A stretch of 43,543 nucleotides of DNA, from the NCBI GenBank assembly GCA_026195255.1, contig JAPHSS010000003.1, forward strand, positions 1 through 43,543, written 5' to 3'. The notes below the pieces were generated by a model, which was not told the DNA's origin, ran no database searches, and was given only the letters and a program-made list of their open reading frames with translations. The position numbers were made by a program, and so were the translations under genes. Of the stretch, positions 2,877 to 18,141 are shown piece after piece (position 1 is the stretch's first letter; each line of letters begins with the position of its first letter). The stretch is from Gammaproteobacteria bacterium. Lineage in GTDB: Bacteria; Pseudomonadota; Gammaproteobacteria; SZUA-229.

Positions 2877-2933
2877 GGGGACACGATACTTAATTAGGTA
2901 ATTATGGTAATTATGGGGACACGATACTTAATT
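2877..2933. repeat. Two direct copies of the GGGGACACGATACTTAATT repeat
   Basis: Copies start at 2877 and 2915, separated by about 20 bases that include repeated GGTAATTATGG motifs. They lie immediately 3' of RAYT relic A, as expected for the terminal repeat of a RAYT-linked element. Confidence 0.7.
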
Positions 2934-3150
2934 AGACATGTCAGCACTTTCTGGTTCTGGTTTTTCTTTATTAACTGCCGTTGTAAAATCAACACAGCTC
3001 TTTCTACAAACTGTTCAGGCCCCATCTGCCGTACACATCCCAGATAATAGATAGAATAGCTTTCTTTGAAAAACTGGGGTGTTAACCATTGTCGCAGTGG
3101 ATTATATGATGCAGATAATCGGGTGGTAGTGCTCTGGCATGTCTTGCCAT
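2933..3150 (-). pseudogene. Decayed RAYT (REP-associated tyrosine transposase), copy A
   Basis: Read from the ATG at 3150, the frame gives MARHARALPPDYLHHI, then loses the expected HVTQRGNRRQ block and stops. Another frame later gives a typical RAYT C terminus (GPEQFVERAVLILQRQL) that runs into the flanking repeat. The family is normally about 200-240 residues. Here only the N-terminal signature and the extreme C terminus remain, joined by a large deletion and frameshifts. The catalytic Tyr and HxH regions are missing, so it cannot be active. The upstream leader (CATTAACATGGAAGG) is identical to that of copy B at 3549-3776. Confidence 0.75.
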
Positions 3151-3180
3151 AATATTTAACCTTCCATGTTAATGAGCTCA

Positions 3181-3525
3181 CTAGAATAGTCTTTTTACAA
3201 TCTCGTATTTTCCATCATTGCCAGAGAGCTCTCTATTATTTACAAAAATTTTAGATTTTGCTTTAACAGCATATTTTGCACCTATTTTAGATGCATATCG
3301 TAGGATGTATATTTTCTCTTTAACCATGCCAGTCTCACGGTGTTTTTTGCCTTTATATGTTCTTTCTAAAAGAAGATACTCATCTGTGATATTTTTTAAA
3401 GAGAATTTTGTATTAATTTTTTTACTAGTTGAATCGTTAAATATTTCAGGATGAATTAACTTTCTAGACTTTGTATTAAATATAAATGGGTCTAGGTCTG
3501 TGCCAGGGACTTTACAAGTGAAGAA
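3181..3525 (-). pseudogene. 5'-truncated unknown gene between the two RAYT relics
   Basis: An open frame of about 115 codons runs from a stop next to the repeat at 3530 down to TAG at 3181-3183. It has no plausible start near its 5' end. The encoded protein is lysine-rich and soluble, with phrases such as DEYLLLERTYKGKKH, KEKIYILRYASKIG and SGNDGKYEIVKRLF. This looks like genuine coding sequence whose beginning was removed when the repeat and RAYT copy B arrived. I do not recognise the family. Confidence 0.5.
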
Positions 3526-3529
3526 TTAT

Positions 3530-3548
3530 GGGGACACGATACTTAATT
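3530..3548. repeat. Single GGGGACACGATACTTAATT repeat
   Basis: This is the same 19-base arm as at 579, 2877 and 2915, located immediately 3' of RAYT relic B (minus-strand sense). It marks the breakpoint that removed the 5' end of the gene at 3181-3525. Confidence 0.7.
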
Positions 3549-3776
3549 AGTACTGTCAGCACTTTTTGGTCCTGGTTTTTTCTTTTTTAACTGCCGTTGT
3601 AAAATCAACTCAGCTCTTTCTATAAGCTGTCAGAACCCACCTGCCGCACACCATCCCTTAACAGCTCAAGGTAATAGATATAATCGCTTTCTTTGAAAAC
3701 AGGGTTGTCGACGATTACCGCGCTGAGTTATATGATGCAGATAATCAGGTGGTAACGCTCTGGCTAGTCTTGCCAT
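3549..3776 (-). pseudogene. Decayed RAYT transposase, copy B
   Basis: From the ATG at 3776 the frame reads MARLARALPPDYLHHITQRG, then NRRQPCFQRKRLYLLP and a stop. That is the hallmark start of REP-associated tyrosine (Y1/IS200-like) transposases, including the HHITQRGNRRQ block. The remainder matches copy A at DNA level (a segment near 3590-3610 encodes the ERAELILQRQL-like end) but is shifted and deleted. It is inactive. Copy A and copy B share upstream and downstream sequence, so they arose by duplication or by independent insertion of the same element. Confidence 0.75.
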
Positions 3777-3808
3777 AATATTTAACCTTCCATGTTAATG
3801 AGCTTTGA

Positions 3809-3970: not shown

Positions 3971-4720
3971 TTAGTTTTGCTGTTCATCTGGCTTAGTAAA
4001 TTGAACCTTAATGAATTTTTCATTTGGGAATATTTCATTAAGATAGGCTTGTAATTTTTCATAGACATTAATTAATGATTCAATATTTTCGTCAATAATA
4101 GTTATTATAGCTGGTGTCATCTTTTGCAGTCTATTAGTTAGATCAGGGCCTAGGCCTTCTTCTATTTTAACTTGCTCTGTTTTTTCACCTTTCTTAAAGC
4201 CTAGTTCTTCCATTTTAGGGAATACTTTATCGAAAACTAGCTTTGATCTTTCTTCGATAACGGAAATGGCTATTCTATATCTTTTTTCTTCGAGCATTAA
4301 TTCGGCGTATATTTCAGGTTCACCTGAGGATAGCAAAAATTCAAGGTTTTCTACATTGAATTTAATACTGGTATGTATTCCAGGGATTATTGGAGACATA
4401 TTTAGCCAAGCATCGTCTCTTTCTCGAAATGGTTTTATATGTTCTTCTTGGAATTGCTTTTGAACATTCCAGATGTCATACAGTGTATGAATAGCTCGAT
4501 TAGATGATGCTATTTGTTTAGCTATTTTCTCGCGCTCTTCTTTATCGTGTTGCAGTTTAAAAGCAAAACTAGCACCTGCATATGCTGAAATTAGGGCAAT
4601 AAGACCTGTAATTATATCTTTTATAGGTAGTTGATCACCCTCAGTAAGACCTCTTAGAATGAAGCCAATAAAGAAGATAATTATAGCTATGATTACTTGA
4701 TGGTCTCCTTTTATTCGCAT
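3971..4720 (-). CDS. Membrane-anchored helical protein, unknown function
   Basis: This 249-residue protein starts with two hydrophobic helices (residues ~8-25, VIIAIIIFFIGFIL, and ~36-56, ITGLIALISAYAGASFAF). A long, charged, mostly helical cytoplasmic region with coiled-coil character follows (KLQHDKEEREKIAKQIA). I recognise no catalytic motif. The ribosome site AAAGGAAA sits about 7 bases before the ATG. The stop codon lies within AACTAAC, which resembles the left core of an attC site, and the next bases (AATCACATCAAGCCGTC) run into repeat debris. By position it is the last gene of a minus-strand cassette array. Similar 'TM plus helical domain' proteins are common in cassettes and in some phage-defence loci, but nothing here proves a role. 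Confidence 0.7.
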   Translation of the reverse strand: MRIKGDHQVIIAIIIFFIGFILRGLTEGDQLPIKDIITGLIALISAYAGASFAFKLQHDKEEREKIAKQIASSNRAIHTLYDIWNVQKQFQEEHIKPFRERDDAWLNMSPIIPGIHTSIKFNVENLEFLLSSGEPEIYAELMLEEKRYRIAISVIEERSKLVFDKVFPKMEELGFKKGEKTEQVKIEEGLGPDLTNRLQKMTPAIITIIDENIESLINVYEKLQAYLNEIFPNEKFIKVQFTKPDEQQN

Positions 4721-4777
4721 TTAAATTTTCCTTTAATTAACCGTAATTAATCGGGGTCAGAGATGAATGGCACTAAG

Positions 4778-5140
4778 TTAAGCCTGTTTATCACGGTGCT
4801 TTCTCCTCTGAGAAATCACCTTCATTTCATGTCTTGGAGCGGTCAATAATTGAAATGGTTTTGGCCTTCGTTTCACCGCTCTTGGCTCGCTTCTACCAGG
4901 GCGTATAATGATTAAATTGTTAGCAATAGATTCATAAAGTAAATCGATTAGCCGCACTCTATCTGTGCTCTTTATTGATGATTGATTTAAATGAGGCTCC
5001 CATTGGCGTAGTGCTTGTAAACTGGCTTTAAAACTTACTTTATTATAGTCTACGGACTTCGTCTTTGCTGCGTCTATCATCAAGCAACGAAGGCTATTAT
5101 ATACAATAAAATATATCAGTATTTCTTTCTTAATAGAAAA
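4778..5140 (-). pseudogene. IS4-family transposase, C-terminal remnant
   Basis: The open frame (from ATG 5164) matches the C-terminal ~110 residues of IS4-family DDE transposases. KKEILIYFIVYNSLRCLMI resembles their YLLVYNLIR segment. The end carries the very typical GRSEPRAVKRRPKP followed by LLTAPRHEM. The N-terminal two-thirds, with the DDE catalytic residues, are absent. Beyond the stop, GGCACTAAGTTAAG and GGGGTCAGAGATGAATGGC (4754-4787) look like the IS right end. On its other side, 5140-5192 is an inverted repeat that cuts the element off. It has landed inside an attC site (see 5218-5224). Confidence 0.75.
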
Positions 5141-5192
5141 GGGGTCGGTGACAAACGATAACACTAATGATTCTCAGTTGTCACCGACCCCT
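5140..5192. repeat. Perfect 14-bp inverted repeat with an extra half-copy
   Basis: AGGGGTCGGTGACA (5140-5153) and its exact complement (5179-5192) flank 25 bases. A third partial arm, CCGACCCCTTTAAT, follows at 5200-5213. The inner part is related to 2807-2847. It resembles a REP/MITE-like unit inserted between the IS4 relic and the attC core. Confidence 0.65.
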
Positions 5193-5217
5193 TTAATCGC
5201 CGACCCCTTTAATCCTA

Positions 5218-5224
5218 GTTAGGC
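5218..5224 (-). other. Left core of an interrupted attC site
   Basis: On the minus strand the stop codon of the gene at 5219 lies inside GCCTAAC, exactly as in the intact attC at 5882-5953. The expected rest of the site and its GTTAGGC partner are missing. Repeat and IS4-relic sequence begin a few bases later, so the site was truncated by insertion. Confidence 0.45.
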
Positions 5225-5857
5225 ATTGCTGTATTCATTTTCATAAGCATTTTTCACAAATTTCATAAACTCTTTTTGGTTCTCATTTAAATAATCTCCA
5301 ATGCTTTCAGGATTTATTTCTAATAGAGTTTTTATTTGTTTTATGACTTTAGGGTGCTCCCAGTTTCTGTTTCTGTTTCCTAGTATTATAGATACAACTT
5401 GCAGACGATCAAATTGCCAGATTATTTTGTTACATGAATTTTGGCAGTCGTTATAATTTTTAATACCATACACTTGCCCTTTGACTAATAAGGAACGCAA
5501 CTTATGCACTGTTTTTTCACAGCTCTCTAATGTTTCATTTAAACGTTCAGAATATTCTTTACCTTCTTTTTCTATAAAGCTAACAGCTTCTGGGTATGCA
5601 AGCTCTTTATTTAAGTCAGTATTATATTTATAACTTTCTAAACCTATATGTATCATCATAAGGTGCTGAGTTGGTACGTTGATGCATTGGACTAATTCAT
5701 GAATTGAATCCGTTAATTCATCGAGAAATTTAGTAACTCTTTGTGACTTATGCTGTTTTTTCCAAGATGTTAAGGCCAAGTAGGCAATATAAACGGTTAT
5801 CATACCTGTAATGCTCGGTATTATTCCTGACCAATTCCAGCTAAAGACTTCACACAT
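5219..5857 (-). CDS. Cassette-borne membrane-anchored protein, unknown
   Basis: The product is about 212 residues. It has one N-terminal membrane segment (WSGIIPSITGMITVYIAYLAL) followed by a helical cytoplasmic domain of unknown fold with several Cys residues and no recognised motif. An ATG four codons upstream (5869) is possible. However, GGAAAG stands about 5 bases before the ATG at 5857, so I prefer that start. The gene begins only 25 bases after the right core of the attC at 5882 and its own TAA is embedded in GCCTAAC. This is the canonical anatomy of an integron gene cassette. In domain layout it resembles the neighbour at 3971-4720 (TM plus helices), but I see no sequence identity. Confidence 0.7.
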   Translation of the reverse strand: MCEVFSWNWSGIIPSITGMITVYIAYLALTSWKKQHKSQRVTKFLDELTDSIHELVQCINVPTQHLMMIHIGLESYKYNTDLNKELAYPEAVSFIEKEGKEYSERLNETLESCEKTVHKLRSLLVKGQVYGIKNYNDCQNSCNKIIWQFDRLQVVSIILGNRNRNWEHPKVIKQIKTLLEINPESIGDYLNENQKEFMKFVKNAYENEYSNA

Positions 5858-5881
5858 TAAACTTTCCATTTAATTTATTTT

Positions 5882-5953
5882 GCCTAACGTTTAAGCTGTG
5901 CGGTGCAAACGAAGCGCAGCGTAGTTTGCGTCCGAACGAGCGCATTGTTAGGC
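5882..5953 (-). other. attC recombination site (integron cassette)
   Basis: On the minus strand GCCTAAC (5953-5947) and GTTAGGC (5888-5882) are perfect RYYYAAC and GTTRRRY cores 72 bp apart. Between them are imperfectly paired arms (GGACGCAAAC against GTTTGCACC) around a central TACGCTGCGCTTC. The stop codon of the PLD-like gene is the TAA of the first core. This matches established attC architecture for IntI-type recombinases, with the cleavage point between G and TTAGGC. Confidence 0.85.
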
Positions 5954-6721
5954 GATTTCTTGTGATGCATCCCAAATGTCTTCATATATTTCTAGTTTGT
6001 CTTTAGCTATTTCAGAACCGACGGGGATAAGATATGCAGGGCTTTTATTACCGGCATGATTTACAGAGCCTCCAGTAATCCAGCAATCTGCACGATCAAT
6101 GATAATGAGTCTATCGTGTAGTTTCTTGCTCTTTTTTACTTCTATATTTGAATTATATTGGGCTTGATGCTTATCAATATACGTTTTGACTTCTTGCGTA
6201 TGTTTGTTGGCAAATACTCGAGCTTTTATATCACTACCAACCTCAGCTAAATAGTTATTAAACGCTTCTCCATCAAAGTATGGATCAATTAAAAATATTT
6301 CTGTTTGAGCTCCACTCACAATAGACTTTAGATCAGCGAAAAATCTATATATTTCACCAGGTGCATAAGCGCTACCAACATCAGCTCTACCTGAAAGTTC
6401 GAGCTCCAATTTAATTTCTTCAATTACATCAAGTGCTAAGCCTTGAATTTGTTCTATTGAAAAATTCCAATATTGACCAAGTATTGACTTGGATCTCTCA
6501 AAGCTGATTTTCCTCGAAGAGCCTGCCTTGCTTATGAGAGCTCCAATTTCTGCAATCCATTGTCTTTGAGGTGATGCACCCGCATTGGGTTTATAAGAAA
6601 GGTCTGGCGCATTGTCCATAAGCTCAGAGAGCTTCAATAATATAATATGTTGCTCAACTGGGCTCGGGCCAGCGAGTTCCCTTGATTGTTTTTCTAATGC
6701 TCTTTTTAAATGTTCACTCAT
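5948..6721 (-). CDS. Phospholipase D-like domain protein (cassette gene)
   Basis: A 257-residue soluble protein. The N-terminal ~110 residues are helical and unassigned. The C-terminal half resembles a single PLD-like catalytic domain. It has a strand ending LIDPYFDG near residue 145, then LHDRLIIIDR near 205, an H-x-R-x4-D variant of the HxKx4D motif, and WITGGSVNHAG, the usual Gly/Ser turn. A single-motif PLD protein would be expected to act as a homodimer on phosphodiester bonds. Similar proteins occur as effectors in defence loci and as nucleases, but the substrate cannot be read here. GGAAA lies about 5 bases before the ATG. The gene is flanked by attC sites on both sides, so it is a complete cassette. 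Confidence 0.75.
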   Translation of the reverse strand: MSEHLKRALEKQSRELAGPSPVEQHIILLKLSELMDNAPDLSYKPNAGASPQRQWIAEIGALISKAGSSRKISFERSKSILGQYWNFSIEQIQGLALDVIEEIKLELELSGRADVGSAYAPGEIYRFFADLKSIVSGAQTEIFLIDPYFDGEAFNNYLAEVGSDIKARVFANKHTQEVKTYIDKHQAQYNSNIEVKKSKKLHDRLIIIDRADCWITGGSVNHAGNKSPAYLIPVGSEIAKDKLEIYEDIWDASQEIA

Positions 6722-6740
6722 TCTATTTCCATATTATTTC

Positions 6741-6830
6741 GCCTAGACGCCCAGTTAAGGGGCCAAGCGAGCTGTTTGCTTGGACCCAGTGTGTGCACGC
6801 TTTTTGCACGCACGGCTTAAACGCCTTGTA
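6741..6830 (-). other. attC site with degenerate cores
   Basis: On the minus strand this reads ACAAGGCGTTTAAGCCGTGC at the left and CTTGGCCCCTTAACTGGGCG at the right, phrases typical of Vibrio/Shewanella-type attC sites. Internal arms pair (CCAAGC 6763-6768 with GCTTGG 6778-6783; GTGCACGC around TTTTT). The outer cores are eroded: CATACAAGG instead of TAACAAGG and GTCTAGGC instead of GTTAGGC. It is probably ancient and may not recombine. Confidence 0.6.
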
Positions 6831-6835
6831 TGTGT

Positions 6836-7333
6836 TTATTTTTTTTCATCTTTAATTCCATGTTTTTGTCGTATGTTTTTATAAATAAATTTTGCATTGT
6901 ATACAAAAACATTACTAGGCTTTTCTTTAAACAAAACTATAGTATTTGATGAGCTTGGTTTTGATATGTTGTAAGTTTGGCCGCCATATGTGTTTGTAGT
7001 TGCACTACCATAAGCTTGATTTCCATTACTATAAACATTACCCGTTGTATATGATGTAGTAGGCGTAGTATATATGCTATTTGATGTATAACTATTTGCA
7101 TCAATTACGGCAAAATATTTATATCCGTTTTTCAATGTTAATTCAGAACTTCGAAGCAATGTAAAATCAGCAACTCTCTCACGCCCAGTATAGCCATTAC
7201 CCCTAAATGAAACTTTAAATACATTTTCGTCTAATTGTGTTTCAGAGTAGCCACCACTAAATCCTGTTTTCTGGTAAGAAGTTGCGCAGCCTTGGAGAAG
7301 AACGGCAATTATTATAAAAACTATCTTATTCAT
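6836..7333 (-). CDS. Putative lipoprotein (cassette gene)
   Basis: A 165-residue secreted protein whose N terminus (MNKIVFIIIAVLLQGCATSY) is a lipoprotein signal with lipobox LLQGC. I start at the ATG at 7333 because AGAGGT lies about 7 bases upstream; six upstream codons are also open. The mature part has a beta-rich start and a low-complexity Ser/Thr/Tyr/Asn stretch (SNSIYTTPTTSYTTGNVY) before a basic C terminus. The N-terminal section resembles the GxSGGYSE-containing lipoproteins often called 'CC0125/CC1285 family'; that similarity is from memory. It is the first gene of the minus-strand array. Confidence 0.7.
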   Translation of the reverse strand: MNKIVFIIIAVLLQGCATSYQKTGFSGGYSETQLDENVFKVSFRGNGYTGRERVADFTLLRSSELTLKNGYKYFAVIDANSYTSNSIYTTPTTSYTTGNVYSNGNQAYGSATTNTYGGQTYNISKPSSSNTIVLFKEKPSNVFVYNAKFIYKNIRQKHGIKDEKK

Positions 7334-7444
7334 TTTAGTACCTCTTTTCACATAACAGTGAATCAGACAGAACTCCTAATAATAGGAATAATCCCCAATA
7401 TTCTCTATAAAATGCCATATATAGCCATAAATTGCTATATCCAG

Positions 7445-7451
7445 ACATAAC
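7445..7451 (-). other. attC right-half core at the entry of array 1
   Basis: On the minus strand ACGTTATGT occurs here, the same right-core form as at 21583-21589 (GCGTTATGT). It lies about 110 bases upstream of the first cassette gene and 75 bases from the rsmJ 3' fragment, so it may mark the junction between backbone and array. The interval 7334-7525 contains no gene. Confidence 0.35.
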
Positions 7452-7525
7452 GTATTATCCATTTTATTAAGTTAGATATAAGCAGCTACATTTAATCAAT
7501 TTGAATAATCCTTTAAAAGCGATAC

Positions 7526-7706
7526 TTACACAACATAAACATCATACCGAGTACCTTTACTCTCATTGTTTAATGTTGGTGATTGCTCCACCTGTAATTC
7601 AGGTGCGCCTTTAGGGCGTTTAACAACAACACGTTTATCAGCTTTTTCTAATGCTGCTTTTAATACCTCATCTGTATCCAGGTCGTGGCCGAGTAACTTC
7701 TGGAAA
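7526..7706 (-). pseudogene. Duplicated 3' end of rsmJ
   Basis: The minus strand encodes the last ~59 residues of RsmJ in frame to its own TAA (7526-7528): QKLLGHDLDTDEVLKAAL, KRVVVKRPKGAPELQ and SKGTRYDVYVV. Intact rsmJ at 10306-11085 has the same segment with scattered substitutions. Homology stops abruptly near 7706, where the sensor-kinase terminus begins. The rsmJ 3' end is thus present twice, on either side of the kinase gene. The copy has no start and should not be expressed as a methyltransferase. Confidence 0.85.
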
Positions 7707-7713
7707 ACCAGAG

Positions 7714-7757
7714 TCAGATCTCAGTTTTATCTAATATTAGTAACAACTGAGATCTGA
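7714..7757. terminator. Inverted repeat overlapping the kinase 3' end
   Basis: TCAGATCTCAGTT (7714-7726) and its perfect complement (7745-7757) flank 18 bases. The right arm and loop lie within the last codons of the kinase gene and the left arm just after its stop. It could act as a terminator, though there is no strong T-run. It also sits exactly at the breakpoint with the duplicated rsmJ end. Confidence 0.45.
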
Positions 7758-10210
7758 TCCTGATTTTTTGTCTCTAGCAAATTTCTCACGTTTGTCAGTA
7801 ATTTGATAGAACTGTATGGTTTATATAGAATGTTTTTTCTTAGATCACCAGGCTCATTGTTGATATGGTGATTATCTTCAAAGCCGCTGACTACTTGAAT
7901 TTTTATTTTAGGGTGTTTACTCATAATACGAGATGCTAACTCATAACCATCCATATTTGGCATTATGACATCCGTGATAACAAGATCGATTGGCTCTTTT
8001 TCTAAAATTTTGAGAGCCTGTTCAGCATTATTGGCAATTATTACTTTATAACCATTAATCTTTAACATTTCTTTTGCTACATTGGCCATCTGTATTTCGT
8101 CATCTACTACCAGTATGTATTCATTTCCTTTTAAGTTTCTGTTGTTAGATTCAATTTTTTCAGGTGTTTGGACGTCATCTTTGCTCTTCGGAAAATATAT
8201 AACAATGCGGGTGCCATGTTTTAGTTTAGAAAAAACTTTAATGGCTCCACCGGAGCGGTTCACAAAACCAAATACCTGGCTCAGGCCAAGTCCAGTTCCT
8301 AACTCACCTTTCGTGGTGTAGAAAGGGTCGAAAATATGATCAAGTGTGTTTTGGTTCATGCCATGACCGACATCAGATATGCTTAGTACAACATATTGCC
8401 CTGCTTTAATGTCTAAGTTACCTGCATCTGTAGTATTTAGAACTTCATTGCTAGTATGAATGGATAATTGACCGCCTGACGCCATTGCATGTAAGGAGTT
8501 TATGCTTATATTAATAATACAATCACCAAGGTCGTTAGTATCAAGTTCAATCGGCCATATGTCTTCTTGCAGGTTATATTTAAGGGTTATTTTAGGTGTT
8601 AATGTTTTCTCAATCATAAGCTGTTGATCAGTTAACAGATTATTAATGTTGCAAACAATTGCTTTGGTTGCTTTTTGTTTTGTGAAGGAAAGTAATTTAT
8701 TAGTTAAATTAACGCCACGTGAGGCTGCTTTCTGAATATCATTTACATATTTAATTAACTTAGGGTCATCAACAAGTCGTTCAGCTAATAGTTCAGAGTA
8801 GCCGCTTATAATGCCTAATAAGTTATTATAGTCGTGTGAAATTCCACCTGTTAATTTACCCAGTGCATCCATTTTTTGACTGCGACGAAGCATTTCTTCC
8901 TGTTGTTTGCGAACGGTTATGTCTCTCCAGACAACATGTAACAGTTGTGTGTCACCTGACGGGATAGCAGTTAAGAGAACTTCTACGGGAAATACTTCGC
9001 CGTTTTTTCGTTTATGATCCCATTCAAAACGATGACTACCATTTTTAAAAGCGGTTTGAATCATAGTGTTTGCTTTTGATTCAGAGAGTTCGCCATCAGG
9101 CTGAAACTCAGGTGATAACTCTGAGGGGCGAGTATTATAAAGCTCTTCCTTAGAATCATAACCAAGCATATTTAAAGTTGCCTGGTTACAATCGACAAAT
9201 TTATCACCCTCTATTATTAGAAGGGCATCGGTGGTTTTATCAAAAAGAGACTGGTAACGTCGTGTACTATCATTAAGTTTTTTTTCGGTCTGGATTCTTA
9301 GTTTAATTTCACTAGACAAGCGGTAAATCCAGTAAGCGAAAATTGCCAGCAATATGGCTGAAGCGACAGTAATATAATAGACAAGTGTATAATCAATTTT
9401 TTCTACGAACTTATCTTTTATCCACCTATCTAATATTTCCTGTTGCTCTTCGTGGCTTATTGTTGCAATGGCTTTATTTAGTATGGAGAGTAATTCAGGT
9501 TTATGTTTCTGAACGCCTAAAGCCAGTTTTGTTTCAAACTCTGTTTTACCTGAAATTTTTACATTATTAAGCCCCATTTCAGAAACAGTGTAACTGCATA
9601 ATGCCAGGGTGCATAAAAGGGCATCTATTTCACCTGTTGAGACTGAAAGTAGACCATCGTGAATGTTTTCAACGGTGTAAAAAGATATATTTGAATAAGT
9701 TCTGCGAATTTTTGGGGTATAACCATATTCACGGATTAATGCGATTTTTTTATCTTTAATACTGCTAATGTTTTCAACGTAATTTTCCGTATGCCTTGTA
9801 GCAATAACGATCGGATTGGAAATATAGGGGGAGGTAAAGTTAAGGTGTGTTTTTAAATCGGAATCATCGGTTTCAGATAAGATATCGACTAAACCCTGTT
9901 TGGCTTTTTGAGTTGATTCGGACCAGGTTTTGCTCAGGCTCATTTCAAAATTGATGCCCGTTTTTTCACTAATTATTTTTAAGTGCTCTGCGACGATACC
10001 AATATAATTTCCATCTTTATCAAATGCCTCATAAGGTAACCAGTTAGGATCACCTGTGAAGCTTATTTTTGGGTTTTCACTTAGCCATTTTTTTTCAGAT
10101 TGAGTTAATTCTAAGACGTTAGGCTCAATATTAGCGAAGGCTGTAATACTTATAAGGGGAGCAACAAATATTAAAGTTAGCAGGTAAGATTTGATGTTTA
10201 GCAGCACCAT
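7727..10210 (-). CDS. Hybrid sensor histidine kinase (SBP_bac_3-PAS-HisKA-HATPase-REC)
   Basis: An 827-residue membrane-bound hybrid kinase. In order: signal peptide (residues ~1-26); periplasmic SBP_bac_3-type sensor (~35-265, with WLPYEAFDKDGNYIGIVAEH); one membrane helix (~275-295); PAS/PAC domain (~320-440, ending VWRDITVRKQQ); HisKA with the phospho-acceptor in GGISHDYNNLLGIISGYSE; HATPase with GTGLGLSQVFGFV; and a C-terminal receiver with DD and phospho-Asp context DLVITDVIMPNMDGYE. The sensor resembles polar amino-acid binding domains, as in BvgS-like kinases, so a small-molecule ligand is likely. No separate response regulator is adjacent. The gene sits between intact rsmJ and a duplicate of the rsmJ 3' end, which marks it as an insertion. 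Confidence 0.92.
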   Translation of the reverse strand: MVLLNIKSYLLTLIFVAPLISITAFANIEPNVLELTQSEKKWLSENPKISFTGDPNWLPYEAFDKDGNYIGIVAEHLKIISEKTGINFEMSLSKTWSESTQKAKQGLVDILSETDDSDLKTHLNFTSPYISNPIVIATRHTENYVENISSIKDKKIALIREYGYTPKIRRTYSNISFYTVENIHDGLLSVSTGEIDALLCTLALCSYTVSEMGLNNVKISGKTEFETKLALGVQKHKPELLSILNKAIATISHEEQQEILDRWIKDKFVEKIDYTLVYYITVASAILLAIFAYWIYRLSSEIKLRIQTEKKLNDSTRRYQSLFDKTTDALLIIEGDKFVDCNQATLNMLGYDSKEELYNTRPSELSPEFQPDGELSESKANTMIQTAFKNGSHRFEWDHKRKNGEVFPVEVLLTAIPSGDTQLLHVVWRDITVRKQQEEMLRRSQKMDALGKLTGGISHDYNNLLGIISGYSELLAERLVDDPKLIKYVNDIQKAASRGVNLTNKLLSFTKQKATKAIVCNINNLLTDQQLMIEKTLTPKITLKYNLQEDIWPIELDTNDLGDCIINISINSLHAMASGGQLSIHTSNEVLNTTDAGNLDIKAGQYVVLSISDVGHGMNQNTLDHIFDPFYTTKGELGTGLGLSQVFGFVNRSGGAIKVFSKLKHGTRIVIYFPKSKDDVQTPEKIESNNRNLKGNEYILVVDDEIQMANVAKEMLKINGYKVIIANNAEQALKILEKEPIDLVITDVIMPNMDGYELASRIMSKHPKIKIQVVSGFEDNHHINNEPGDLRKNILYKPYSSIKLLTNVRNLLETKNQDQISVVTNIR

Positions 10211-10305
10211 CGCAGCCTTGTTTTAAATATTATATGAAATATTATAGCTAACTTTTTTTATAAATTGTATTGAAGTGCTAATTTCTATATCTTTAAAAAC
10301 GAACC

Positions 10306-11085
10306 TTATATGACATACACATCATACCGGGTACCCTTACTCTCATACTTCAATGTCGGCGATCGCCCGATCTGTAATTCAGGTGCGCCTTTAGGGCGTT
10401 TAACAACAACACGTTTATCAGCTTTTTCTAATGCTACTTTTAATACCTCTTCTGTATCCAGATCGTGGCCAAGTAACTTCTGTAAAATTTGCATATTCTT
10501 TTTAACCGATGCAGATTTCTTTTTTTCGGGGTACATGGGGTCTAAATAAATGACATCTGGTTTATTGTCTTCGGTTATCGCATGTATATATTCCAGTGCA
10601 TCACAGTTATGTAATTTGAAACCTTGTTTAGTGGTGTCTGAAAATTCAATATTTAGACTGGCTCGCTCAATGCCGTCTTTAACTAATGCGGCAACAATCG
10701 GTGAGCGTTCAACCAGTGTCACGGGGCAGCCAAGGCAGGCAAATACGTAACTGTCTTTGCCTAAACCTGCGGTAGCGTCTAATACAGATGGAATCGGTTT
10801 TCCCTGTTTTATACCGATGGCTTTGGCTATGGTCTGGCCTTTGCCACCGCCAAACTTCTTTCGGTGGCCTAAACTGCCACCCACAAAGTCGACTGACAGG
10901 GTCATGTTGTTTTGCAGGTCAATTATCTCAAGCTGCATCTCGGTAAAGTTAAGTGTGAGCTCTGATTGGGCCTTGTGTAAGGGCTGGCAGGCCAGGTCGT
11001 GCTCGCTGGCAAAGGCTTCTGCGGCTTTTTTCTGTGCCGGATGCGCATAACTCACGCTTAATAACTGAGGTGTTGGTGTTTTCAT
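10306..11085 (-). CDS. rsmJ: 16S rRNA m2G1516 methyltransferase RsmJ
   Basis: A 259-residue protein matching RsmJ (YhiQ) in length and sequence. This family is a SAM-dependent enzyme that methylates G1516 of 16S rRNA in the 30S subunit. Diagnostic blocks are GGSLGHRKKFGGGKGQ, the SAM motif LDATAGLGKDSYVFACLG (motif I, near residue 120), the ERSPIVAALVKDGI acidic loop, the catalytic-type motif YLDPMYPEKKKSA, and KRPKGAPEL near the end. It is divergent from ycaO with 171 bases between the starts, a spacer that contains the 12-bp tandem repeats. Its last ~60 codons are duplicated at 7526-7706. Confidence 0.93.
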   Translation of the reverse strand: MKTPTPQLLSVSYAHPAQKKAAEAFASEHDLACQPLHKAQSELTLNFTEMQLEIIDLQNNMTLSVDFVGGSLGHRKKFGGGKGQTIAKAIGIKQGKPIPSVLDATAGLGKDSYVFACLGCPVTLVERSPIVAALVKDGIERASLNIEFSDTTKQGFKLHNCDALEYIHAITEDNKPDVIYLDPMYPEKKKSASVKKNMQILQKLLGHDLDTEEVLKVALEKADKRVVVKRPKGAPELQIGRSPTLKYESKGTRYDVYVI

Positions 11086-13988: not shown

Positions 13989-14026
13989 GATGCCATATAT
14001 GGTAATTTATTACCATATATGGCATC
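13989..14026. repeat. Perfect 18-bp palindrome with 2-base centre
   Basis: GATGCCATATATGGTAAT (13989-14006) and its exact complement (14009-14026) are separated by TT. There is no T-run after it, so it is a weak terminator candidate. Together with 13874-14115, which otherwise holds no gene, it forms the boundary between tatD and the array. The entry to array 1 carries a related string, ATGCCATATATAG near 7410. Confidence 0.75.
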
Positions 14027-14080
14027 TTATCCATAATAATGGCAAGTATTCCTAATGTCAGGGATTCTGTCTAATTAATT

Positions 14081-14087
14081 GTTAGCA
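14081..14087 (+). other. attC right-half core at the entry of array 2
   Basis: GTTAGCA stands 28 bases before the first cassette gene. The same core and spacing context (TGTTAGCA, then a strong ribosome site) occurs at 17411-17417. The preceding GGCAAG to TTAATT interval is also alike at both places. The left half of the site is not clear. Confidence 0.4.
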
Positions 14088-14115
14088 AAACTATAAATTA
14101 ATCAAGGAGAATCTT

Positions 14116-14544
14116 ATGGCTCTATCAAGAGCAGAGGCAAAGATAACAGTTGCAAAATTATTGGAGTTAGCTTATTCCGAGGATAAAGGAATGACAGCTA
14201 AAATAGTTGCAAGTAAAGCTGGCGCAAAACTAACTATAGATCAAAATGGTAAAGCTACCCTAACAGGTAACACAGGTGCATTAACATTTTCTGGGTCGCC
14301 CGTTTTAGATAGAATTGGAGTGAAAATAAAGCGCGTTAACATCTCTTTTAATAATAAAGGCGGCATGAACATAGGGTATCGTGCTACTTTCGATTTGCTG
14401 TATATAAAATTAACCGTAATGGGTGAGTTTGATCTGGAAGAACTGATAACGTCTTGCTCTGGGCTTCTATGCAAAGCAGCTCGCGCCCTAAAAGGCAAAC
14501 ATCATGCTTATGATTTAGAGTTACAGAAAATAATGGGGCATTAG
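14116..14544 (+). CDS. Hypothetical protein, first gene of array 2
   Basis: A 142-residue protein with no signal peptide or membrane segment. A helical start (SRAEAKITVAKLLELA) leads into a beta-rich middle (ATLTGNTGALTFSGSPVLD; VKIKRVNISFNN) and a C-terminal helix with Cys residues (LEELITSCSGLLCKAAR). I do not recognise a family. AAGGAG lies about 7 bases before the ATG. Its stop is followed after only two bases by the next ATG, so the two genes are translationally linked and appear to share one cassette. Confidence 0.65.
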   Translation: MALSRAEAKITVAKLLELAYSEDKGMTAKIVASKAGAKLTIDQNGKATLTGNTGALTFSGSPVLDRIGVKIKRVNISFNNKGGMNIGYRATFDLLYIKLTVMGEFDLEELITSCSGLLCKAARALKGKHHAYDLELQKIMGH

Positions 14545-14546
14545 AA

Positions 14547-15002
14547 ATGAAAAAAACAATACTAGGATTTATTTCAATTCTATTTCTTATAAGTTGTGCC
14601 GTTGGCACTCAGCCACTGCATGCACTTTATCATTCGTATACATTATACAATGAGTCACTAAATGAAAATAACATTAATGACGATGCGAAACTATACTTTA
14701 CCCAATCGCTGCTAGGTGACGATTACGCCACAAACCCTGATGCATCGAGCCAGTTATTGTTTAAAAATTATATGCACTCTGTGGTTAATCACTTTGAAGA
14801 GATAAACAACAACAATGGCTGTCTAACCATTAATGGTTATGGAAAAGATAAGGCGCCTGTAATTTTCAGTCTAAAATATAAAAAAAATATGGGGAACTGG
14901 TTAATTGATAAAATTCATGTTGTGTTTATAGAAAACATAAAAGATTTTAGCAAAAAAGCTAAATGCCCTGAGGCTTTCGAAAATAAAAATGCTAACAAAT
15001 AA
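14547..15002 (+). CDS. Putative lipoprotein, unknown function
   Basis: A 151-residue protein with a clear lipoprotein signal (MKKTILGFISILFLISCAVG, lipobox LISC). The mature part is mixed alpha/beta and includes FSLKYKKNMGNWLIDKIHVV, reminiscent of small NTF2/DUF4878-like periplasmic folds in which a strand pair ends in 'W.I..I'. That comparison is only structural intuition. It begins two bases after the preceding gene. Its stop at 15000-15002 overlaps the left edge of an attC-like site, as expected for the last gene in a cassette. Confidence 0.7.
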   Translation: MKKTILGFISILFLISCAVGTQPLHALYHSYTLYNESLNENNINDDAKLYFTQSLLGDDYATNPDASSQLLFKNYMHSVVNHFEEINNNNGCLTINGYGKDKAPVIFSLKYKKNMGNWLIDKIHVVFIENIKDFSKKAKCPEAFENKNANK

Positions 15003-15079
15003 ATTAACGCAGACAACTTTGAGCTACGGCCTAAAGAGCAGGCCGCACCTCAAAGTCGCTGGTTATTAAGGCGTTGAGA
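15002..15079 (+). other. attC-like site abutting an IS
   Basis: The left core is AATTAAC (15002-15008) and the right core GTTGAGA (15073-15079). Inner arms CAACTTTGAG and CTCAAAGTCG pair around CGGCCT...AGGCCG, and TTAACGC pairs roughly with GCGTTGA. The cores deviate from consensus in one or two positions. The IS1182-family element starts at the very next base. Confidence 0.6.
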
Positions 15080-16904
15080 CTGCAGAAAAACCTCAAACTA
15101 TCACTTTTTCACCTCCAAAATTGTTACAATGACTCAACATAAACGGAGTCATGTAAATGCCAAAATTTATTCCTTATGACTACAACCAAAATGCAATGGT
15201 TGTTATTAATTATCTGGATCAACTTCAACCTGGAACGTTTGAACACGCAATACATTACCTGGTTGAAAATGAAGTTGATATCTCTGTATATTTTCCGGCT
15301 TATAAAAACGAAGACAATGGCCGGCCAGCTTATGATCCAGCAATACTCTTAAAAATAATCCTATTTGCCTATTCAAAAGGCATAACCTCAAGTCGTGAAA
15401 TAGAGTGGAACTGCAAAACAAATATTATTTTTAAAGCCCTCTCCTGCGATACCGTTCCACATAACACCACCATCGCAAGTTTTATTAGTGGACACCCGCA
15501 ATCGGTTGAATCCATCTTTGAACAAATACTTTTAACCTGTGATCAACAGGGGCTACTCGGTCATGAGCTGTTTGCAATAGATGGCTGCAAAATGTCATCG
15601 GATGCCAGTAAAGAATGGTCAGGTACCATTAAAGAGTTAAAAGCAAAACGAAACAAAATTAAAAAGTTAATTAATTACCATATCGAACAGGACAAGCAGC
15701 TCAGTAAAAACACCCCTCATGATCAAGAGCGCATACAACGTGAAAAACAGGCTACTGAAACACTCACAAAAGCCTATAAGAAAGTCGACAAATTCTTAAA
15801 AAAAGCTGAACCAAGGATTGGGTCAGGGAAAAGCAAAGCAGAAGTTAAAAGCAATATTACCGATAATGAAAGCGCCAAAATGAAAACCAGCAAAGGCACC
15901 ATACAAGGGTATAACGGAGTAACCTCGGCTGATAAAAAACACCAGATCATCATAGATGCCCAGGCCTTTGGGCGAGGCCCAGAACAGTCCACACTGCAGC
16001 CCGTGCTTGAAACCATACAGCAGCGTTACTCCCGACTGGCGATTAATGAAGACATTTACAAAACCGAAATAGTCATTACCGCCGACACCGGCTTTGCCGA
16101 TGAACCGAACATGCAATACCTCAATGAAAATATTATAAACGGATACATCCCAGATAACCAATTCAGAAGCCGAGACGATAAATTCTCAAACCAGAAAACT
16201 AAACACGGCAAACGTAACCAGGACAATAAAACAAAATCCAAATGCGTTATCCACGCCTCTGAATTTCAATACGACCCAACAAACAACACCTGTCATTGCC
16301 CGCAAGGGAATTTAATGACCATGAAAAAACAAGGTGAAAACCAACGTGGCATAGAAACAATTTTCTTCCATTGTAAACCCAGCATTTGCAAAGCCTGCCC
16401 GAAAATAAAAGCCTGCATGCGTAACCCGCAATCCGCAACAAAAGTAAATGGAACCGGACGACAAGTTTCATTTGTAGTAGAGTCAAAAAGAAAACCCACC
16501 TACACCGACTGGATGAAAGAACGCGTAGACAGTGACAAAGGAAAAGCAGTATACAGCCACAGAATGTCAGTCATCGAACCGGTGTTTGGAAACTTATCCA
16601 ACAAAAGACTGACAAAATTCAGCCTACGTGGAAAAGAAAAAGTACAATGCCAGTTAAAACTTTTTTGTTTAATTCATAACATAGAGAAGATAAAGAATTA
16701 CGGACAGATAGCTGCTTAAGGGACTGATAGACCGAGATAATAGAAAGAAAAATAAGCCAAAACTAATATTGTTGCAAAAAAACAGCAATACCTTAATAAT
16801 ATAAAAAGATTAAGCATCTTGTTCGCAAAATACTAATAATTTTAAAATAAATAATAAAAACATGGGCTGGATGAATTCGACGGTATTTATGGGTTTTTCT
16901 GCAG
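15080..16904 (+). mobile_element. Complete IS1182-family insertion sequence
   Basis: Terminal inverted repeats CTGCAGAAAAACC (15080-15092) and GGGTTTTTCTGCAG (16891-16904) bound an 1825-bp element with a single intact transposase. I see no target-site duplication (left flank GTTGAGA, right flank CCTCGTT). It is inserted at the edge of, or within, an attC site. The ~170 bases after the transposase stop are AT-rich and non-coding. Confidence 0.88.
15157..16719 (+). CDS. IS1182-family transposase
   Basis: A 520-residue DDE transposase, full length for the IS1182 group. The N-terminal domain (~1-110) has the typical MPKFIPYDYNQNAM start, ISVYFPAYKNEDNGRPAYDP and ILFAYSKGITSSREIE. The catalytic region contains FAIDGCKMSSDASKEWSG (first Asp), VITADTGFADEPNMQYL (second Asp), a zinc-like CHCPQGN...CKACPKIKACMR cysteine cluster, and HRMSVIEPVFGNLSNKR with the final Glu. 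A charged coiled coil lies near residues 160-225. The frame is uninterrupted and the ends are intact, so the element may still be active. Confidence 0.92.
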   Translation: MPKFIPYDYNQNAMVVINYLDQLQPGTFEHAIHYLVENEVDISVYFPAYKNEDNGRPAYDPAILLKIILFAYSKGITSSREIEWNCKTNIIFKALSCDTVPHNTTIASFISGHPQSVESIFEQILLTCDQQGLLGHELFAIDGCKMSSDASKEWSGTIKELKAKRNKIKKLINYHIEQDKQLSKNTPHDQERIQREKQATETLTKAYKKVDKFLKKAEPRIGSGKSKAEVKSNITDNESAKMKTSKGTIQGYNGVTSADKKHQIIIDAQAFGRGPEQSTLQPVLETIQQRYSRLAINEDIYKTEIVITADTGFADEPNMQYLNENIINGYIPDNQFRSRDDKFSNQKTKHGKRNQDNKTKSKCVIHASEFQYDPTNNTCHCPQGNLMTMKKQGENQRGIETIFFHCKPSICKACPKIKACMRNPQSATKVNGTGRQVSFVVESKRKPTYTDWMKERVDSDKGKAVYSHRMSVIEPVFGNLSNKRLTKFSLRGKEKVQCQLKLFCLIHNIEKIKNYGQIAA

Positions 16905-16940
16905 CCTCGTTATAAAAAATGAATAAAGAGGAAGTAGGCA

Positions 16941-17273
16941 ATGCCACATATTATAATTGAATATCCGGAACAGGCGATGAAAGATGTTGATATCCCTACG
17001 GTCTTAAAAGCTGCACGTGATGCTGTTGTCGACAGTGGATTGTACAAGTTAAGTCAAATCAAAACCCGGGCGTATGGGTTTGGTGTGCATACCTATGCTG
17101 ATGGCACTGATCCTTATATTCATATACAGGCAAGGATTTGTTCGGGGCGCGATGAAGATAACCGAAATCGAATGAGTCAGGTCATTCTTTCAGGAGTAAA
17201 AGCACTGGAGCTCCCTGTTTCGGTGATAACGGTTGAAGTGGTTGATATGGACCGGGTCTCTTATGCACGATAG
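16941..17273 (+). CDS. 5-carboxymethyl-2-hydroxymuconate isomerase family protein
   Basis: A 110-residue protein of the CHMI (HpaF) branch of the tautomerase superfamily. It starts MPHIIIEYPE, so after Met removal Pro-1 would be the catalytic base. Later family features include TRAYGFGVHTYADGTDPYIH and an Arg-containing SGRDEDNRNRMSQVI. In homoprotocatechuate degradation this enzyme isomerises a dienoic intermediate. No other gene of that pathway is present, so the true substrate is uncertain. GAGGAAG precedes the ATG. It lies just after the IS, whose right flank CCTCGTTATAA may be the displaced end of the preceding attC, and before another attC, so it seems to be a cassette gene. Confidence 0.82.
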   Translation: MPHIIIEYPEQAMKDVDIPTVLKAARDAVVDSGLYKLSQIKTRAYGFGVHTYADGTDPYIHIQARICSGRDEDNRNRMSQVILSGVKALELPVSVITVEVVDMDRVSYAR

Positions 17274-17352
17274 GTTTAATCAGTTTGAATATCGATCAGG
17301 GAATAATACACAATGAACATCATACAGGTAAAAACACATAATAATTCATTCA

Positions 17353-17417
17353 ACATTAACCATTTTTACACGTCGCTTTGCTCTATGTAAAAATGGCAAG
17401 TTAATTCGACTGTTAGC
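17353..17417 (+). other. attC-like hairpin
   Basis: Arms CCATTTTTACA (17360-17370) and TGTAAAAATGG (17386-17396) are perfectly paired. The left core is CATTAAC and the right core GTTAGCA at 17411-17417, which matches the entry core at 14081. The next gene starts 25 bases later behind AAAGGAGA. Confidence 0.5.
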
Positions 17418-17441
17418 ATAATGAAACAAAAGGAGAATTGA

Positions 17442-17660
17442 ATGGACATAAATATGTCAGTTCAAGATAATTTCTCATCATATATTGATGAAAAAACAGG
17501 ATTGGCTATCTTTGTTGACTCTTTTGATAATCACGATTTTGAAGTCAGAATTGGAAGTACTGATGAATCTGTATCAATGGGCACGTCAACAGCAGAAAAC
17601 GACGAAGAGTTAAACAGAAGTATTCTTGAATTGGTTGAAAAATACAAGGAAAATTCATAA
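17442..17660 (+). CDS. Small acidic protein, unknown
   Basis: A 72-residue acidic protein (many Asp/Glu, few basic residues), mostly beta-like in the first half (LAIFVDSFDNHDFEVRIG) and helical at the end (LNRSILELVEKYKENS). It has no signal or membrane segment and no recognised family. The ribosome site AAAGGAGA is strong. Acidity and size would suit an antitoxin, inhibitor or phage-mimic protein, but no partner toxin is evident. Confidence 0.55.
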   Translation: MDINMSVQDNFSSYIDEKTGLAIFVDSFDNHDFEVRIGSTDESVSMGTSTAENDEELNRSILELVEKYKENS

Positions 17661-17726
17661 TGGGTATAATGCAAAACGATATTACAGTCTTAGAAGCTAT
17701 TCTAAATTAAAGCTTTCTAAGGAAAC

Positions 17727-17924
17727 ATGTCATTTAAAATGTCAGTTCACTTTGTAAAAGACAGCATGAATGACCCAGGAAATACTCCTTCTATAACAAT
17801 TACTGAGTTACAAAGCATATTTAATCGTTTATTAACTGTGCATATAAGCGCTTTAGCTAAACTACATGCAGTGTCAGGTCACGGTGATCATATGCATATA
17901 TCTGTAAACCAGGGAAGAGTATGA
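17727..17924 (+). CDS. Small ORF with His-rich C terminus
   Basis: A 65-residue frame starting behind AAGGAA. It includes the segment ITITELQSIFNRLLTVHISA and a His-rich tail (LHAVSGHGDHMHISVNQ) that could bind metal. Its stop overlaps the next ATG in an ATGA arrangement, which suggests translational coupling and supports both being real. I do not recognise it. It could still be a decayed remnant of a longer gene. Confidence 0.4.
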   Translation: MSFKMSVHFVKDSMNDPGNTPSITITELQSIFNRLLTVHISALAKLHAVSGHGDHMHISVNQGRV

Positions 17925-18034
17925 ATAAATATTCCAAAGAGGCTTTAAGTTATAACAAGAACTTAGAAAACATAGTAACCAATTATAAAGCCATTATCAC
18001 ACCCACAACATTAACTATTACAAATGGCAATTAA
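17921..18034 (+). CDS. 37-residue ORF coupled to the preceding gene
   Basis: The ATG at 17921 overlaps the previous stop (ATGA), with AGGGAAG 3-4 bases upstream. The product, MNKYSKEALSYNKNLENIVT plus 17 further residues, is polar and helical at first, then Thr-rich (TPTTLTITNGN). It ends four bases before an attC-like site, exactly where a cassette gene should end. It is too short for a family call. Confidence 0.35.
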   Translation: MNKYSKEALSYNKNLENIVTNYKAIITPTTLTITNGN

Positions 18035-18037
18035 AGA

Positions 18038-18116
18038 GGTTAACAAGGCAGCCAGGTTCGCATGTGTAAAAACCGCACATGTTTGGTCGCTGCTTAAAAA
18101 TCAATGGGGTTAGTTC
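18038..18116 (+). other. attC-like site
   Basis: It starts GGTTAACAAGGCAGCC. The arm AAGGCAGCCAGGTTCGCATG pairs imperfectly with CATGTTTGGTCGCTGCTT, and the right core is GTTAGTT (18110-18116). A closely related string, TTCGCATATGTAAAA, is found in the site at 20122-20211, which supports a shared origin. Confidence 0.55.
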
Positions 18117-18141
18117 AGGTATGTCCACAAATGGAGATTCA

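What the first reader, a model, noticed from the sequence alone, without database searches (positions are those of the whole stretch)
7526..10490. A sensor kinase gene is wedged between intact rsmJ and a second copy of the rsmJ 3' end
The last ~59 codons of rsmJ occur twice: inside the intact gene and at 7526-7706, still in frame to a stop but with scattered substitutions. The hybrid histidine kinase lies exactly between them and homology ends abruptly at 7706. This is the footprint expected if DNA carrying 'rsmJ plus kinase' from a related genome integrated at the rsmJ 3' end and restored the gene, leaving the original tail behind. A gene 3' end acting as an integration target is also typical of islands, though no integrase is seen.
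Basis: partly seen in the sequence, partly recalled or inferred. Interest (0 to 1): 0.7.

Follow-up and report, generated by a model that had tools for sequence, protein, structure and literature searches.

The report
Sensor kinase between two rsmJ tails
A sensor gene sits just behind a housekeeping gene, with a second, decaying copy of that gene's end on its far side; this is most likely the scar of an ordinary recombination event and not a new mobile element.

Summary
The last 60 codons of rsmJ plus about 15 bp downstream occur twice (7511-7707 and 10291-10487, 174 of 197 identical), flanking one 827-codon hybrid histidine kinase gene. The closest relative held, G002, has the same rsmJ-kinase pair, but its contig ends inside the kinase. 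The other three genus members have no such kinase beside rsmJ. Of 219 class genomes with a detected rsmJ, only this one showed a second tail.

Both tails belong to one shallow clade (own, G002 and fragment 88-94% alike; 70-75% to the rest of the genus), so any donor was very close.

Likeliest history: recombination between close relatives, homologous within rsmJ on one side and illegitimate on the other, at the base of a hairpin at the kinase end. No integrase, attC site or TniQ was found to support an island, cassette or Tn7-like element.

More unusual, and seen in passing: a dispersed palindromic repeat ending in an attI-like core, with cassette-like genes after both window copies.

The parts
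10306..11085 (-). intact rsmJ (16S rRNA methyltransferase, yhiQ), 259 codons
   Evidence: Pfam PF04445 E 1.1e-80; PDB yhiQ chains E 7e-52; orthologues in relatives
10291..10487 (-). rsmJ tail, copy inside the intact gene plus about 15 bp past its stop
   Evidence: direct repeat D1; site by site comparison
7727..10210 (-). hybrid sensor histidine kinase, 827 codons: SBP_bac_3 sensor, PAS, HisKA, HATPase_c, receiver domain
   Evidence: Pfam; 95% aa orthologue over 689 codons beside rsmJ in G002; dN 0.021, dS 0.159 over these 689 codons, so under purifying selection
7704..7767 (.). 64-bp palindrome at the kinase stop codon; on the plus strand a run of T follows it, so terminator-like; its outer base is the junction with the fragment
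   Evidence: inverted repeat I1; fold -30.2 kcal/mol, z -4.9; not reported by the simple terminator scan
7511..7707 (-). displaced second copy of the rsmJ tail (codons 200-259 and about 15 bp downstream), truncated at its 5' end; presumed not to make a protein
   Evidence: differences from G002 at codon positions 1, 2, 3 number 3, 4, 7 over 59 codons
10211..10305 (-). rsmJ-kinase spacer, shared with G002
   Evidence: aligned to G002 with a few substitutions and one gap
7349..7458 (-). dispersed palindromic repeat with an attI-like end, just left of the fragment; cassette-like genes follow

Best explanation
This is the scar of one recombination event, not a working device. DNA carrying 'rsmJ 3' end + kinase' from a very close relative recombined with the resident rsmJ by ordinary homology. 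On its other side it was joined illegitimately, just beyond the hairpin at the kinase end, to codon 200 of the resident rsmJ. The host thereby kept an intact rsmJ, gained a kinase unit (spacer, gene, hairpin) behind it, and kept its old tail as a decaying relic. Shown: the duplication, the kinase between, the shared rsmJ-kinase pair in G002, purifying selection on the kinase, the closeness of both tails. Inferred: the donor, the direction (which tail is the resident one), the one-sided-homology mechanism, and that the fragment is not expressed.
For: The repeat flanks exactly one gene of 90 aa or more. A kinase orthologue is beside rsmJ in G000 and G002 and not in G001, G003 or G004, where the best kinase matches are 51% or less over part of the protein; one gain is simpler than several losses. 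The sensor's nearest relatives among 369 class genomes (67% and 62%) are in other families, while the best other genus match there is 47%. In the best tail tree the fragment lies outside own+G002 (bp-RELL 0.64-0.68). Own and G002 share a valine where the fragment and the other three genus members have alanine; the column varies in the wider family. Kinase dS 0.159 is below each of 40 controls (mean 0.267, sd 0.048, minimum 0.163). Sites where the fragment equals G002 lie more to the 5' side and sites where own equals G002 more to the 3' side (rank test p 0.0099; coding sites alone 0.043; max-chi permutation p 0.065). The junction shares only TTTT.
Against: No tail topology is rejected (AU 0.72-0.76, 0.34-0.38, 0.17-0.18). 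rsmJ tail and body do not differ in synonymous divergence from G002 (5 of 56 against 25 of 186, p 0.49). The best divergence breakpoint is at kinase codon 178, not in rsmJ, so a later exchange inside the kinase could explain its low dS; a 143-codon gene left out of the controls had a still lower dS, 0.062. Kinase GC 35.7% and GC3 30.4% lie within the range of the window's other genes. One site (index 25) supports fragment+G002. The far side of the kinase in G002 was not found.
Confidence: 0.5

Rival explanations
1. Local duplication: in an ancestor of G000, near the time of its split from G002, a segment including the rsmJ tail was duplicated (for example tandem duplication of rsmJ tail + kinase, then deletion). 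No foreign tail is involved, and the fragment decayed in place.
For: Both tails lie in the same shallow clade. The fragment's dS to own and G002 (0.298 and 0.148) brackets the usual G000-G002 distance (mean 0.267), so a duplication near the split suffices. Intact body and tail are equally diverged.
Against: Does not by itself bring in a kinase not found beside rsmJ in three of five genus members. No remnant of a second kinase start is visible after the fragment (sequences printed, compared by eye).
Confidence: 0.22
2. Campbell-type integration: a circle holding one rsmJ tail plus the kinase entered by a single crossover within the tail, giving two hybrid tails around the kinase. RecA could also take it out again.
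For: The structure is what a single crossover leaves. The weak mosaic signal in the tails is what it predicts. Circularised linear DNA integrating by single crossing-over is described in E. coli (PMC3240628, abstract seen).
Against: Only 21 informative sites; max-chi p 0.065. No circular form or donor found.
Confidence: 0.15
3. Integrase-made genomic island at the rsmJ 3' end that has since lost its integrase and other cargo.
For: Restored gene 3' end and displaced tail are the classical footprint (recalled knowledge). The DNA after rsmJ differs among genus members.
Against: Only the kinase lies between the repeats. None of the 9 matches of this genome to the integron-integrase profile, which also picks up related recombinases, is on the window's contig. 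The repeat is longer than common att sites (recalled). No other of 219 class genomes with rsmJ showed a second tail.
Confidence: 0.07
4. Remnant of a Tn7-like CRISPR-associated transposon (type I-F3b), which is known to home to the rsmJ 3' end.
For: I-F3b elements use rsmJ as an att site (PMC11406308, passages); [quoted passage not shown]
Against: No TniQ match in this genome, while the same search matches in 17 of 369 class genomes. Such elements are not known to duplicate 200 bp of the target gene (recalled). Tns and Cas genes were not searched.
Confidence: 0.02
5. Assembly or binning error that joined two strains' rsmJ regions.
For: The kinase-fragment junction is known from one assembly only.
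Against: 43.5-kb contig of a 99.9% complete genome with 1.3% contamination. The rsmJ-kinase side is confirmed in G002.
Confidence: 0.04

Closest known systems
Homology-facilitated illegitimate recombination (definition seen in PMC3240628; de Vries and Wackernagel 2002 and Prudhomme et al. 2002 seen there as citations only)
   Same: Homology on one side of the incoming DNA, a junction with almost no homology on the other, gain of a gene
   Different: Inferred from a relic; donor not found; here the host gene's end is doubled
Genomic islands integrated at gene 3' ends by tyrosine integrases (recalled)
   Same: Gene 3' end restored by the incoming copy, displaced copy at the far boundary
   Different: No integrase between the repeats, one cargo gene, 197-bp repeat at 88% identity, no recurrence detected at rsmJ in 219 genomes
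Type I-F3b CRISPR-associated Tn7-like transposons homing to rsmJ (PMC11406308, PMC12452197; passages)
   Same: rsmJ 3' end as insertion address
   Different: No TniQ match in the genome, and no tail duplication expected (recalled)

Membership tests
homology-facilitated illegitimate recombination product | homology to the recipient at one end of the insert | tested here: met
   rsmJ tail, 174 of 197 identical
homology-facilitated illegitimate recombination product | junction with no more than a few shared bases at the other end | tested here: met
   homology stops at 7707; shared TTTT only
homology-facilitated illegitimate recombination product | intact gene's distal part from a donor lineage, fragment from the resident | tested here: inconclusive
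   AU test rejects no topology; tail and body do not differ
integrase-type genomic island at a gene 3' end | integrase gene next to one boundary | tested here: not met
   only the kinase among ORFs of 90 aa or more lies between the repeats; no integron-integrase profile match on the window's contig
integrase-type genomic island at a gene 3' end | recurrence of the same site in other genomes with displaced tails | tested here: not met
   1 of 219 class genomes with rsmJ (this one) has a second tail at E 0.001 or better; the other 10 with more than one match are explained otherwise. Short or very diverged tails could be missed
type I-F3 CRISPR-associated transposon | TniQ | tested here: not met
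   no TniQ in G000; the same search matches in 17 of 369 class genomes
type I-F3 CRISPR-associated transposon | Tns and Cas genes, Tn7-type ends | not tested
   not searched genome-wide
integron gene cassette | attC site at the end of the cassette gene | tested here: not met
   the hairpin at the kinase end has no attC core sites by eye (sequence); the attC-like sites seen lie outside the repeat pair, e.g. 5876-5960 and 6725-6850

The most novel reading that the evidence does not exclude
The kinase is an integrase-free homing module. It travels as a 2.78-kb circle or linear DNA carrying its own copy of the rsmJ tail, enters any related rsmJ by a single RecA crossover that always restores the gene, and can leave again by recombination between the two tails, giving presence/absence switching of a sensor at a fixed address.
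Probability: 0.06. Interest if true: 0.6.

Novelty: new member of a known kind. Interest (0 to 1): 0.25.

Why it matters
It is a tidy natural example of how a regulatory gene can be added behind a housekeeping gene without damage and, as far as seen, without a dedicated mobile element, with the displaced gene end kept as a record. Its value is as a worked case of gene gain by ordinary recombination between close relatives. It does not change a field.

Tried and rejected
A bootstrap tree was not obtained: one search failed at that step and the repeat stopped on a thread setting.

Donor search in GTDB r220 contigs with the kinase: more than 549 stretches encode a relative, the best 80 were kept, and none exceeds 61% identity in its best segment; records of this genome or very near ones may be left out there. 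The sensor search in 369 class genomes gave relatives at 67% and 62%; by eye these are GGDEF/EAL proteins, in other families, and no rsmJ was seen by eye among the ORFs listed around them. No donor locus was found.

Recurrent hotspot at rsmJ: not supported. Transposon (CAST) remnant: not supported. Kinase as integron cassette: rejected. The idea that tail and kinase moved together after the G000-G002 split was tested by divergence profile and not upheld, as the breakpoint falls in the kinase.

Partial duplications as a habit of this genome: in 560,866 bases (28 stretches, window included) 5 same-strand direct repeats of at least 100 bp lay within 20 kb of each other. Besides the rsmJ pair they were a repeat at 2909/3524 of the window, a short pair in L214 (not examined further), two paralogous PilT-type genes in L221 and remnants of what looks like the start of a REP-associated transposase in L226 (both named from recall). 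None of those examined was a core-gene tail.

Rows left out: pairs below 80% aa identity or 70% coverage were dropped before counting, and of the 48 kept pairs the kinase and seven shorter than 150 codons were left out of the controls (one of 143 codons had dS 0.062, below the kinase). In one search site 4 (the junction base) and sites 137-139 (G002 private or three-way) were left out. A first control set of 27 genes was enlarged to 40.

Full report
What is there. A 197-bp direct repeat (7511-7707 and 10291-10487, 174 of 197 identical) covers the last 60 codons of rsmJ and about 15 bp beyond its stop. The right-hand copy is inside an intact 259-codon rsmJ. Between the copies lies one gene of 827 codons with an SBP_bac_3 sensor, PAS, HisKA, HATPase_c and receiver domains. 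A strong 64-bp palindrome covers the kinase stop (fold -30.2 kcal/mol, z -4.9), and the homology of the left copy begins at its outer base, sharing only TTTT. The simple terminator scan did not report it, so 'terminator-like' is my reading. That the fragment is not translated is inference.

Relatives. Five genomes of the genus are held. G001, G003 and G004 (rsmJ 80-83%) have no kinase there, and each has different DNA after rsmJ. In G001 and G004 yajQ follows within about 3 kb. In G000 yajQ lies 433 bases from the end of another contig, C59, whose end is a sequence repeated elsewhere in the window; the gap after rsmJ has thus grown or been rearranged in G000 (inference). The sensor part of the kinase is 67% and 62% identical to the sensors of proteins in two other families that by eye carry GGDEF and EAL domains, but 47% to the best other genus match. 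It was therefore probably not inherited as such from the genus ancestor. Against a foreign origin, its base composition is not unusual for the window.

Which tail is which. Own and G002 tails differ at 11 of 197 sites, fragment and G002 at 17, own and fragment at 23. In coding positions the three are 88-94% identical to each other and 70-75% to the other genus members, so both tails come from one shallow clade. Six-taxon likelihood over 177 sites prefers ((own,G002),fragment), but the AU test keeps all three shapes. A valine shared by own and G002, where the fragment and the other three genus members have alanine, points the same way; the column varies further out. One site speaks for fragment+G002. 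The two classes of informative sites (8 and 13) are not evenly placed along the tail (rank test p 0.0099; coding sites only 0.043; max-chi permutation 0.065). This is a hint of a crossover inside the tail and no more.

Divergence profile. Between G000 and G002 the kinase has dS 0.159, below all 40 control genes of at least 150 codons (mean 0.267, sd 0.048, minimum 0.163; one shorter gene, 143 codons, is lower at 0.062). That would fit exchange or arrival after the species split. But the best single breakpoint in synonymous divergence along tatD-ycaO-rsmJ-kinase is at kinase codon 178 (167 of 1200 against 32 of 475, permutation p 0.0005), and the rsmJ tail does not differ from its body (5 of 56 against 25 of 186, p 0.49). 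The low value may reflect a later exchange inside the kinase, and I do not use it as proof of the transfer model.

Is it a hotspot or an element? Of 369 class genomes, 219 have an rsmJ match by profile. Eleven have more than one match: this genome; six with successive pieces of one gene; three with a weak hit elsewhere; and one (G088) with a middle piece on another contig. None of those ten is a second tail. In a separate set of 40 nearest relatives, 29 had rsmJ and again only this genome had two matches. Short or very diverged tails could be missed. rsmJ is a known address of type I-F3b CRISPR-associated transposons (PMC11406308 and PMC12452197, passages), but this genome has no TniQ match while the same search matches in 17 of 369. 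No integrase lies between the repeats. In 560,866 bases of this genome no second core-gene tail duplication was recognised.

Mechanism. The simplest account is integration of DNA from a close relative with homology at rsmJ and an illegitimate joint behind the kinase. The reaction type is described for natural transformation (homology-facilitated illegitimate recombination; definition seen in PMC3240628, abstract and passages). Single-crossover entry of a circle, and local duplication, are not excluded. I give the first about 0.5.

Verdict. It is a known kind of event.

Noticed in passing
window 7349-7458 (minus), 13997-14084 (plus); also G000 C60:108114, C12:60421, C21:24644: A dispersed ~100-bp palindromic repeat ends in a core (TTCTGTCTAATTAACTGTTA-like) that matches the presumed attI region beside this genome's integron integrase (22 nt at 95%, E 7e-4; the other window copy 43 nt at 79%, E 0.002, both in small searches). 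After both window copies cassette-like genes follow; G002 has the second copy without them. It may be an attI-like dispersed entry site for cassettes, possibly akin to published attG sites (Loot et al. 2024, seen only as a citation; not tested against them).
   Followed up: partly
window 3971-7351 (minus) and L226 3900-4700: Series of one-gene units with attC-like sites (by eye 5876-5960, 6725-6850; in L226 about 4575-4670). The one at 6725-6850 is 82% identical over 105 nt to the attC-like site after the first gene next to the integrase on contig C70. They look like integron cassettes far from the integrase.
   Followed up: partly
window 14082-18121: Block absent at this place from G002, with small genes, an IS1182-type transposase (name recalled; Pfam DDE_Tnp_1_6) and, by eye, attC-like hairpins near 15003-15080 and 17360-17415; its left end coincides with the end of the attI-like repeat.
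   Followed up: partly
window 5948-6721 (minus): Cassette-like gene with a sub-threshold PLD-like domain and a partial match to PADLOC candidate defence model PDC-S05 (E 1.5e-19).
   Followed up: no
window 2909-3178 and 3524-3804; 582-633: Repeats with the phrase GGGGACACGATACTTAATT, also found on other contigs; perhaps remnants of small mobile repeats.
   Followed up: no
L226 3476-3630 and 6554-6708: Another nearby pair of ~156-bp direct repeats (90%) in this genome, made of the start of what looks like a REP-associated transposase gene (name recalled), flanking cassette-like genes.
   Followed up: partly
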